Origin: Ancylomarina subtilis
Lineage (GTDB): Bacteria; Bacteroidota; Bacteroidia; Bacteroidales; Marinifilaceae
Direction of reading: 5' to 3'
NCBI RefSeq assembly: GCF_004217115.1
Contig: NZ_SHKN01000001.1
Location: 310,001 to 374,000 of the forward strand
DNA: 64,000 nt
Every line of letters begins with the position of its first letter. Position 1 is the first letter of the stretch. A program made the translations under genes and the position numbers. The notes beneath the pieces are model-generated. The model saw only the letters and a list, made by a program, of their open reading frames with translations. It ran no database searches and was not told the origin of the DNA. Of this stretch, positions 18,430 through 56,783 are shown piece after piece.

Positions 18430-18891
18430 ATGATTCAAAGAATTCAAACCTTATTCCTATTGGGAGTTTTAATCTTAATCTCATTGATGTTCTTTTTCCC
18501 TTTGGCAGAATTAATCGATCCGGCAAATATTTCCTACTCATTTATATACAGAGGTATTCCTTCGGTAATTGAAGGAGAACCGATGCTTTTTAAAGCTTAT
18601 CCTGTTGCAATTCTATTGACAATTATTGTTTTAAATGTCCTGGTTACAATTTTTTCCTATAAAAAGCGTATTCGTCAGATTCGATTAACGGTTTTTAATA
18701 TTTTTTGCATGCTGGGTATGATGGGCTTGGTTTATTACAGTATAAACTCGCAGGTTGAGGAAATGAATGCCATTGCAAATTATAGCATTATTAATGCTTT
18801 TCCATTGGTGGGTGTTGTTCTATCTTACCTGGCAATTCGTCATATTGGAAAAGATGAAGCTATGATTCGTTCGATGGATCGAATTCGATAA
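18430..18891 (+). CDS. DUF4293 family membrane protein
   Basis: A 153-aa integral membrane protein with four predicted helices: ~7-25, ~57-76, ~89-109 and ~123-142. The opening MIQRIQTLFLLGVLILISLM and the layout match DUF4293, a Bacteroidota-specific family of unknown function. It ends in a basic cytoplasmic tail (AIRHIGKDEAMIRSMDRIR) typical of the family. Monocistronic, with a terminator 44 nt after the stop. Confidence 0.85.
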   Translation: MIQRIQTLFLLGVLILISLMFFFPLAELIDPANISYSFIYRGIPSVIEGEPMLFKAYPVAILLTIIVLNVLVTIFSYKKRIRQIRLTVFNIFCMLGMMGLVYYSINSQVEEMNAIANYSIINAFPLVGVVLSYLAIRHIGKDEAMIRSMDRIR

Positions 18892-55224: not shown

Positions 55225-56433
55225 TTATTCAGGTAAACCATAAGTTTCAATTACATAATCAAGATCTTTATCACCTCTACCACTTAGATTAACCAATATA
55301 GATTGTTTTGGATTGGACTTAGCTAACTTTATAGCATAAGCTATGGCATGTGCCGACTCAAGAGCTGGAATAATACCTTCCAATCGACTTAATTCAAAAA
55401 AGGCGTCAATACATTCCTGATCATTGATATGATGATATTCTGCTCGTTCTAAATCTTTAAGCATAGAGTGCTCGGGTCCAACACCAGGGTAGTCCAAACC
55501 ACTGGCAACAGAATAGACAGGAGCCGGTTCACCAGCCTCATCTTGCAACATATAGCATTTGAAACCATGAATAACACCTGGTTTGCCAAGAGTCAGTGTT
55601 GCAGCATGTTTTCCTTCTTTATCTATGCCATGTCCTGCAGGTTCTACGCCATGAAGTTTAACGTTTTTATCATCAATAAAAGCAGAGAATATGCCCATAG
55701 CATTACTGCCACCACCTACACAAGCAACAATATTGTCGGGTAATTCACCTGTCATTTCTTCAAATTGATCGCGGGCTTCAATTCCCACAACACGTTGGAA
55801 TTCGCGAACCATCATGGGGAAGGGGTGTGGACCAACGACAGAGCCAATACAGTAGATGGTATTGACTGGATCTTGAAGGTAGGCCTGAAATGCAGAATCA
55901 ACAGCTTCCTTCAGCGTTTTTAATCCATGACTTACAGGGACGACGGTCGCACCAAGTATTTTCATGCGCATGACATTGGGATGTTCTTTTGCAATATCAA
56001 CTTCTCCCATATGAATTTCACACTCCAATCCAAAGTAAGCAGCAGCTGTGGCTAAGGCAACCCCGTGTTGGCCTGCACCCGTTTCTGCAATAAGCTTCTT
56101 TTTCCCCATATATTTTGCCAATAAAGCTTCACCCATGCAGTGGTTTAATTTATGGGCACCGGAATGGTTTAGGTCTTCACGCTTTAAGTAGATGCGTCCG
56201 CCGTATTTTTCTGATAAACGGTTACAATAATACACTGGTGTTGGACGCCCCTGAAAGTGCTTTCGGATGCTTCTGAGTTCCGAAATAAATTCATGCGATT
56301 TACTAATTGAGTAATAGGCTTCGTTTATGCGTTTCATTTCCTCTTCGAGGGCTGGAGGAATAAAGCTGCCGCCAAATTCACCGAAATAACCTTTTTCGTT
56401 AGGGTAATTTTTAAAATAGTTTTGAAATGTCAT
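55225..56433 (-). CDS. trpB: Tryptophan synthase beta chain, stand-alone
   Basis: A 402-aa PLP enzyme that joins indole and serine to tryptophan. The PLP Lys95 is in [13 protein letters not shown], catalytic Glu117 in [11 protein letters not shown], and the phosphate loop in [27 protein letters not shown] is the usual end. [14 protein letters not shown] and the long N-terminus mark the TrpB1 type that pairs with TrpA. The motif HSGAHKLNH and [18 protein letters not shown] differ from the usual HTGAHKVNN and MGAVDIERQAPNV, so it is a divergent subgroup. No trpA is adjacent. A trp attenuator precedes it. Confidence 0.93.
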
Positions 56434-56481
56434 GGTATTTTGATTTAATAATTAGAATTCTACAATTGGGTGTAAAAAAAA

Positions 56482-56502
56482 AGACCTGCGAGAAGCAGGC
56501 CT
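56482..56502 (-). terminator. Attenuator terminator of trpB
   Basis: On the minus strand AGGCCTGC-TTCTC-GCAGGTCT forms an 8-bp stem (one G-U) followed by nine T residues, 50 nt before the trpB ATG. Segment CTTCTCG (56489-56495) inside it can instead pair with an upstream segment, see the leader entry. Confidence 0.85.
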
Positions 56503-56561
56503 TTTTAGTATATGAATTATGTGTATATGGCTAACCCTTCTCGATATGATTTATTGAGAAG
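56489..56561 (-). promoter_or_regulatory. trp attenuator: competing 1:2, 2:3 and 3:4 pairings
   Basis: Segment 1 CTTCTC (56561-56556), segment 2 CGAGAAG (56543-56537), segment 3 CTTCTCG (56495-56489). 1 pairs with 2 and 3 forms the terminator when tryptophan is plentiful. If the ribosome stalls at the Trp-Trp codons, which lie directly before segment 1, it covers segment 1 and leaves 2 free to pair perfectly (7 bp) with 3, breaking the terminator. Confidence 0.82.
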
Positions 56562-56587
56562 TTCCACCAAAAATTATTTTGTGTCAT
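56531..56587 (-). CDS. trpL: trp operon leader peptide
   Basis: An 18-codon frame, MTQNNFWWNFSINHIEKG, too short for normal gene calling, located between the promoter and the attenuator of trpB. Two adjacent Trp codons (56564-56569) are placed just before segment 1 of the attenuator. An in-frame ATG at 56599 would give a 22-residue form. Its job is to sense charged tRNA-Trp by ribosome stalling; the peptide itself is probably inert. Confidence 0.8.
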   Translation of the reverse strand: MTQNNFWWNFSINHIEKG

Positions 56588-56603
56588 ATTTGTTTTCATG
56601 CAA

Positions 56604-56634
56604 CAATGTTATCGCATTTTTTATTTATAAACAA
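56604..56634 (-). promoter_or_regulatory. Promoter of trpL-trpB
   Basis: On the minus strand TTG (56634-56632), a 20-nt spacer and TAACATTG (56611-56604), 7 of 8 matches to the -7 consensus. The alternative leader start at 56599 lies 4 nt after it. Confidence 0.55.
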
Positions 56635-56783
56635 GTGTTGTCCGAAAAAAAGTCTGAATGAGATTGAATTCCAGCGCTAGTATTCGTATCTTAAAGAGTT
56701 GATTTTTCAGAGTTTAAGATTTAATTCTAAGAAAGAAAAGAATTTGTTTGCTTAAGTTTGAATTTGGAGAGGAAAATATAAAG

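What the first reader, a model, noticed from the sequence alone, without database searches (positions are those of the whole stretch)
56482..56634. Textbook ribosome-mediated attenuator with a Trp-Trp leader peptide before a solo trpB
A TTG-TAACATTG promoter, an 18-codon frame MTQNNFWWNFSINHIEKG with tandem Trp codons, and three mutually exclusive pairings (CTTCTC with GAGAAG, CGAGAAG with CTTCTCG, and a terminator with nine T residues) are all present in the correct order. Leader-peptide attenuation is well established in gamma-proteobacteria; a clean case in this phylum, upstream of a single trpB, is less familiar.
Basis: partly seen in the sequence, partly recalled or inferred. Interest (0 to 1): 0.72.

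Follow-up and report, generated by a model that had tools for sequence, protein, structure and literature searches.

The report
Tryptophan attenuator before stand-alone trpB
In a marine Bacteroidota bacterium, a spare copy of the last tryptophan-making gene carries what looks like its own ribosome-read tryptophan switch; the kind of switch is already known in this phylum, but finding it on this spare gene is unusual.

Summary
On the minus strand (56634 to 56474) lie a Bacteroidota-type promoter-like site, a short Trp-Trp leader frame, a hairpin, an alternative (antiterminator) pairing and a terminator with nine T, then a trpB alone on its strand (56433-55225). All five Ancylomarina genomes examined keep the parts: leader 90% and terminator 92% identical, against 57% at trpB third codon positions. 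Folding supports the expected states, with exceptions told below. Ribosome-mediated Trp attenuation is very probable, untested in the laboratory. The claim that this is unfamiliar in the phylum is not right: Rfam RF01692 (Bacteroid-trp, 2010) is this kind, although the window scores 37.8 bits, below its cut-off of 49. Less ordinary: the gene is a second, stand-alone trpB; the same genome's trp operon has its own Trp leader; and of 97 solo-trpB rows looked at, a tandem-Trp leader frame was found only in Ancylomarina and in one other family member. The genome also encodes a tryptophanase, so indole salvage is plausible. In sister genera the same slot holds an RNA with covariation support and no Rfam match.

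The parts
56604..56634 (-). promoter-like site: TTG (56634-56632), 20 nt, TAACATTG (56611-56604)
   Evidence: one mismatch to the sigma-ABfr -7 consensus TAnnTTTG quoted in PMC7366714 (passage); TAACATTG in 4 and TAACATTA in 1 of 5 Ancylomarina genomes
56531..56599 (-). leader peptide frame, 22 codons from the first ATG (56599) or 18 from the second (56587): MKTNMTQNNFWWNFSINHIEKG
   Evidence: frame without indel in 5 of 5 genomes, 90.3% identity
56564..56569 (-). tandem Trp codons TGGTGG
   Evidence: invariant in 5 of 5
56556..56561 (-). region 1, CTTCTC
   Evidence: pairs with region 2 in the full-length fold
56537..56543 (-). region 2, CGAGAAG
   Evidence: complementary to region 1 and to the terminator loop (shuffle P 0.02 for 2:3 in the window leader); ends 3 nt before the stop codon
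56507..56530 (-). spacer between stop codon and terminator; GCC at 56531-56529 (sharing the last base of the stop) is predicted to pair with GGC of the terminator 5' arm
   Evidence: 56530-56508 is 97.4% identical, the most conserved stretch measured; pairing in the stalled-state fold of the window leader
56478..56506 (-). intrinsic terminator stem-loop (12 pairs, loop TTCTC); contains region 3, CTTCTCG, at 56495-56489
   Evidence: -15.8 kcal/mol alone
56474..56482 (-). run of nine T
55225..56433 (-). solo trpB, 402 aa, with no other ORF of 80 aa or more next to it on its strand (downstream gene convergent, upstream gene divergent)
   Evidence: TIGR00263 trpB 542.9 bits, cut-off 392.45; second copy elsewhere in the genome 48% identical

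Best explanation
A ribosome-mediated (leader-peptide) transcription attenuator that reads tRNA-Trp charging and controls a stand-alone trpB. Trp short: the ribosome stalls on the tandem Trp codons and covers region 1 (CTTCTC starts 2 nt after them); region 2 is free and pairs with the loop of the coming terminator, in the window leader with a weak GCC:GGC clamp on its 5' arm, so the terminator fails and trpB is transcribed. Trp plentiful: the ribosome reaches the stop codon and covers region 2; the terminator forms. No translation: region 1 pairs with region 2 and the terminator forms. Shown here: the sequences, their conservation and the predicted folds. Inferred: promoter use, stalling, termination and the response to Trp. 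The likely purpose (inferred) is salvage of indole to Trp, as the genome also has a trp operon and a tryptophanase.
For: Parts in the right order and spacing. Leader conserved in 5 of 5 Ancylomarina genomes: ORF 90.3%, spacer 97.4%, terminator 91.5%, against 56.6-61.6% upstream and 56.9% at trpB third codon positions. Folds cut as the model demands: with a ribosome on Trp and RNA made up to the first base of the 3' arm, 4 or 5 of the 5 loop bases pair upstream in 5 of 5 leaders; ribosome at the stop, the terminator; no ribosome and full length, 1:2 plus terminator (these two structures printed for the window leader only, energies for the others). In 29 RF01692 leaders of the order plus 6 solo leaders, upstream RNA pairs with both terminator loop and 5' arm in 34 of 35, against 37% of 1400 shuffles. 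Best RF01692 match in the window's genome and in 4 of 5 genomes of the genus. Tryptophanase NF053783 873.5 bits, cut-off 750.
Against: No expression data. RF01692 score 37.8 is below the gathering score 49; the five solo leaders of the genus are all below it (in G003 the solo leader is second, 28.9 against 29.1 bits), and in the stricter 295-genome scan the window's own genome gave no match at E <= 0.01. Pairings hardly vary in the genus, so covariation cannot prove them; one 2:3 pair is lost in L009 and its match is not above shuffles (P 0.28). The stalled-state energy is not lower than that of shuffles in 3 of 5 Ancylomarina leaders (fractions 0.78, 0.53, 0.40). Without a ribosome, before the 3' arm is made, the best fold of L001 (the window) and L008 is the antiterminator, not 1:2 (it is 1:2 in L009, L010, L011), which does not suit the 'no translation gives termination' step. 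The complete terminator is the more stable end state (-22.0 against -15.4 with the antiterminator forced, 110-nt stretch), so kinetics must decide. CTTCTCG lies mostly in the loop, so exclusion rests partly on the weak clamp. Most solo trpB rows lack such a leader.
Confidence: 0.86

Rival explanations
1. A constitutive terminator or small leader RNA; the Trp-Trp frame is a chance ORF and trpB expression does not respond to Trp.
For: No expression data; the complete terminator is the most stable fold; most solo trpB rows have no such leader.
Against: Frame, Trp codons, both alternative helices and terminator stay while flanks and third codon positions fall to about 57% identity; WW-ORF plus terminator expected 0.033 times per window; the order of parts matches that of trp operon leaders.
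Confidence: 0.05
2. Attenuation by another sensor: T-box (tRNA binding), TRAP-like protein or a metabolite-binding RNA.
For: Any of these can use a terminator before trp genes (recalled).
Against: No Rfam family reaches its cut-off in the window, and no T-box or riboswitch family is among the 29 matches listed at E <= 10 for 56380-56760; a conserved Trp-Trp frame has no role in them. A TRAP site was not searched for.
Confidence: 0.03
3. Attenuator as above, but the released leader RNA or peptide has in addition a trans role, as reported for peTrpL of Sinorhizobium (PMC7298713, search listing and start of abstract only).
For: The spacer after the stop codon is the most conserved stretch (97.4%), more than cis pairing alone seems to need.
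Against: The spacer can pair within the leader; no target was sought.
Confidence: 0.06

Closest known systems
Bacteroid-trp RNA, Rfam RF01692 (Weinberg et al. 2010)
   Same: Phylum; tandem Trp codons in a short frame; hairpin right after them; region 2 matching the terminator; spacer; terminator; trp gene downstream. 37.8 bits over the whole model.
   Different: Below the gathering score 49. Gene is a solo trpB paralogue; of 30 RF01692 loci inspected 23 have a trpB and 6 a trpE match within 1.5 kb downstream, 1 neither. Region 3 is centred on the loop, while in 23 of 29 it spans loop plus 3' arm.
Trp_leader, Rfam RF00513 (gamma-proteobacterial type, as recalled)
   Same: Same logic and order of parts; 27.6 bits.
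   Different: Below its gathering score 41; antiterminator geometry differs (E. coli geometry recalled).
Leader of the same genome's trp operon (L007:1134-1290)
   Same: Trp codons (WWW), terminator, same organism; the frame is present in 5 of 5 Ancylomarina genomes.
   Different: Longer peptide (30 aa), different terminator; its single-helix 2:3 match is not above shuffles (P 0.67); not among the three RF01692 matches of the genome at E <= 10 (150 of 939 candidates scored).

Membership tests
Ribosome-mediated (leader-peptide) Trp attenuator, as a kind | Short frame with tandem Trp codons after a promoter | tested here: met
   By sequence. Promoter activity and translation not tested
Ribosome-mediated (leader-peptide) Trp attenuator, as a kind | Alternative pairings: 1:2, 2:3, terminator | tested here: met
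   Predicted; energies ordinary in 3 of 5 Ancylomarina leaders; not probed in the laboratory
Ribosome-mediated (leader-peptide) Trp attenuator, as a kind | Terminator before a Trp biosynthetic gene | tested here: met
Ribosome-mediated (leader-peptide) Trp attenuator, as a kind | Read-through depends on leader translation and tRNA-Trp charging | not testable with these tools
   needs transcription assays
Rfam RF01692 Bacteroid-trp | Covariance-model score at or above the gathering score 49 | tested here: not met
   37.8 bits, so it is not filed as a member. In the order scan 27 of the 42 genomes with a match are below it as well (15 of 295 over)
Rfam RF01692 Bacteroid-trp | Parts in model order from start to terminator 5' arm | tested here: inconclusive
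   model positions 1-131 aligned end to end, but most outer pairs of the model hairpin are marked as non-standard or deleted in the window
Rfam RF00513 Trp_leader | Score at or above the gathering score 41 | tested here: not met
   27.6 bits
T-box leader | Match to a T-box covariance model | tested here: not met
   none over cut-off, none listed at E <= 10

The most novel reading that the evidence does not exclude
Many Trp attenuators of Bacteroidota, this one included, use a variant antiterminator that seizes the terminator loop together with parts of its arms rather than only the 5' arm, and in Ancylomarina this module has been recruited onto a stand-alone trpB so that a tryptophanase-bearing cell turns indole back into Trp only when tRNA-Trp is uncharged; a second family member (G005) appears to have done the same separately.
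Probability: 0.35. Interest if true: 0.5.

Novelty: new member of a known kind. Interest (0 to 1): 0.36.

Why it matters
If true, a classic regulatory module has moved to a paralogue outside the operon, giving one genome two separately attenuated routes to Trp: synthesis by the operon and, probably, salvage of indole. It also points to a loop-targeting antiterminator in many leaders of this phylum, which can be tested directly.

Tried and rejected
Serine riboswitch idea: the RNA before solo trpB in sister genera lies before an L-serine ammonia-lyase gene in the two Ancylomarina genomes looked at, and both enzymes use serine (recalled). Not adopted: one match per genome, found in one family only apart from a weak match, and by eye a separate TACATTTG promoter-like site before the Ancylomarina gene; an independent small RNA is likelier.

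Origin by copying the same genome's operon leader: thought unlikely, because peptide, terminator and RF01692 rank differ. Origin from a trpB-first operon leader remains open.

Stand-alone activity set (Res6 of LBCA TrpB, PMC11917138, passages): read by hand from the alignment, with a numbering offset of 2 that I inferred, the solo TrpB has 3 of 6; inconclusive.

The sigma-70 scan does not suit this phylum and was not used. The TnaA model TIGR02617 fell below its cut-off, but NF053783 passes.

Literature searches bearing on Bacteroidota Trp attenuators or solo trpB: none of the rows listed is about an attenuator on a solo trpB; two searches listed 15 of 193 and 12 of 18 papers, and titles and abstract starts were all I saw of most. 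'Tryptophan riboswitch' was searched for the sister-genus RNA and gave 8 papers, none opened.

The odds of the novel case were lowered from 0.40 to 0.35 because the family's operon leaders do not pass the single-helix test, which the draft did not weigh.

Full report
OBSERVATION. The feature is on the minus strand. Reading 56634 downwards there are a TTG and TAACATTG spaced by 20 nt, two in-frame ATGs (56599, 56587), tandem Trp codons (56569-56564), CTTCTC (56561-56556), CGAGAAG (56543-56537), a stop (56533-56531), a 24-nt spacer, and a 12-pair terminator (56506-56478) whose T run ends at 56474. trpB starts at 56433, with no other ORF of 80 aa or more beside it on its strand. The leader folds better than all of 200 shuffles (z -4.24). 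A WW short ORF followed by a terminator is expected 0.033 times in a shuffled window (60 shuffles); two were found, one of them inside a longer ORF at 18430-18891.

HOST AND GENE. The nearest named solo trpB is that of Ancylomarina salipaludis (96%; its contig is as long as the contig of genome G002, which the tools place in the window's genus), so I take the window to be from Ancylomarina (family Marinifilaceae in the NCBI lineage of its relative Labilibaculum). The solo TrpB passes NCBIfam trpB (542.9 bits, cut-off 392.45). The genome has a second trpB, 48% identical, in an operon that reads as trpEGDCFBA (apart from trpB, the gene names are from the look of the ORFs). That operon has its own leader MNASVCKFWWWHNTNLSNTLSRNVRPICKI and terminator. 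The genome also has a tryptophanase above its curated cut-off.

CONSERVATION. One search covered 58 genomes, the window's included; 17 hold a solo-trpB orthologue at 74% identity or more, 5 of them (with the window's) of the same genus. All 5 have the leader. Mean pairwise identity: far upstream 56.6%, near upstream 61.6%, promoter 75.6%, leader ORF 90.3%, spacer 97.4%, terminator 91.5%, UTR after it 85.4%, trpB third codon positions 56.9%. The Trp codons never change. The pairings hardly vary, so they are conserved but not proved by covariation; in L009 one 2:3 pair is lost and the match is not above shuffles (P 0.28; the other four 0.005 to 0.035).

MECHANISM. Folding RNA cut according to ribosome position gives, for a ribosome on Trp with RNA made up to the first base of the 3' arm, CGAGAAG:CTTCTCG plus a GCC:GGC clamp on the terminator 5' arm in the window leader and L008, and loop-directed pairing in the other three (5 arm bases paired upstream in the first two, 1, 4 and 6 in the others). 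With the ribosome at the stop codon the terminator forms. With no ribosome and full length, the 1:2 hairpin and the terminator form together (structure printed for the window leader; energies for the rest). Against: with no ribosome and before the 3' arm is made, the best fold of the window leader and of L008 is the antiterminator rather than 1:2 (1:2 in the other three). The finished terminator is the more stable structure (-22.0 against -15.4), and in 3 of 5 leaders of the genus the stalled-state energy is no better than in shuffles, so the choice must be kinetic.

THE KNOWN FAMILY. RF01692 Bacteroid-trp matches end to end at 37.8 bits (cut-off 49) and RF00513 at 27.6 (cut-off 41). In 295 genomes of the order, 42 have an RF01692 match at E <= 0.01 and 15 exceed the cut-off; in that stricter scan the window's genome itself had none. 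Of the 30 loci fetched, all have tandem Trp codons; 29 could be analysed (in L164 no terminator was found). In 23 of 29 the best single-helix partner of the upstream region spans the terminator loop and 3' arm with none of the 5' arm; 15 of 29 beat shuffles at P <= 0.05. Folds up to the loop plus four bases of the 3' arm pair upstream RNA with both loop and 5' arm in 34 of 35 leaders (29 plus 6 solo), against 37% of 1400 shuffles; 20 of 35 have energies reached by at most 5% of their shuffles. Leaving out most of the 3' arm biases this test towards loop pairing; the shuffles carry the same bias. The operon leaders collected were not put through as such, though some of them are also among the 29; none of the 8 operon leaders of the window's family tested there (L007, L139-L145) beat shuffles (P 0.63 to 0.95), so the loop grip is not shown for them. 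From memory, the E. coli antiterminator uses the 5' arm; I did not search for papers on the antiterminator of this family beyond the calls named.

DISTRIBUTION. Of 97 solo-trpB rows, 8 have an ATG...WW short frame upstream: 5 Ancylomarina genomes, two of them seen twice (L059 and L060 repeat L008 and L009), and L023 (genome G005, same family). L022 and L093 are also one contig. Two rows have no upstream DNA (L112, L116) and six have less than 450 nt. A looser test (two or more Trp, plus a terminator) adds only L120 among these, without tandem Trp. A tree of 92 solo TrpB rows, with L059, L060, L093, L112 and L116 left out, needs three changes of the leader label, forced by well-supported branches: as I read it, a gain in Ancylomarina, a separate gain in L023, and L012, which lies inside the Ancylomarina clade without the leader. 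The count alone does not exclude one gain and two losses, and L023 is a long branch.

SISTER GENERA. In 9 genomes (and in named Labilibaculum and Marinifilum loci) solo trpB is instead preceded by a conserved hairpin RNA. Pair counts on 14 distinct sequences: 93.5% of cells paired, 9 pairs with changes on both sides (1 of 500 shuffles as high), 0 of 500 shuffles reach the covariation score, 46 of 500 reach the number of pair types. A model finds it in 21 of 56 genomes of the family, including 4 of 5 Ancylomarina genomes (not G003), in none but the window's own of 393 order genomes, and in the window's own plus one weak match (E 0.03) of 395 class genomes; scans over 40 genomes use stricter filters. 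No Rfam match at E <= 0.5 overlaps it in the nine loci that hold it or its slot in sister genera (8 of the 9 such loci given; L017 left out); the Ancylomarina copy was not put to Rfam. In the two Ancylomarina genomes looked at it lies before an L-serine ammonia-lyase gene.

VERDICT. A real, conserved and very probably working Trp attenuator: a new member of a known kind on an unusual gene. Papers were seen only as passages or listings: PMC2864571 (one table row), PMC6414381, PMC7366714, PMC9723704, PMC4833913, PMC11917138 (passages), PMC7298713 (listing).

Noticed in passing
L038:5871-5979 (window genome); L012-L020, L061, L127: Hairpin RNA with covariation support and no Rfam match in the loci tried, one match per genome, before solo trpB in sister genera and before an L-serine ammonia-lyase gene in two Ancylomarina genomes looked at.
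   Followed up: yes
L007:11286-11580: Two successive Phe/Tyr-rich leader frames (MTVLNSYFWFYFYFIN; MNTSMSYNYFFYFWFFYFRSDPRPYDII), each followed by a terminator-like hairpin and T run, ahead of a gene that looks like pheA: possible tandem attenuators.
   Followed up: partly
L012 (genome G024): Its solo trpB nests inside the Ancylomarina clade (99/88 with L009) while its upstream RNA is of the sister-genus type: looks like replacement of the coding part.
   Followed up: partly
window 56508-56530: Spacer after the leader stop is the most conserved stretch (97.4%); TCATAT in it pairs with the ATATGA around the second ATG in the fold.
   Followed up: partly
L147:10686 (minus), also in L023: Another Trp-Trp leader (MIVRLLNTNWWCTDQRYKFDE) and terminator before a 74%-identical solo trpB in another genus of the family.
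   Followed up: partly
L092, L097, L100: Colwellia solo TrpB sequences nest among Flavobacteriaceae in the tree, which suggests transfer between phyla.
   Followed up: no
window 18767 (+): Short WW frame followed by a terminator, but inside a 153-aa ORF (18430-18891): a decoy.
   Followed up: yes
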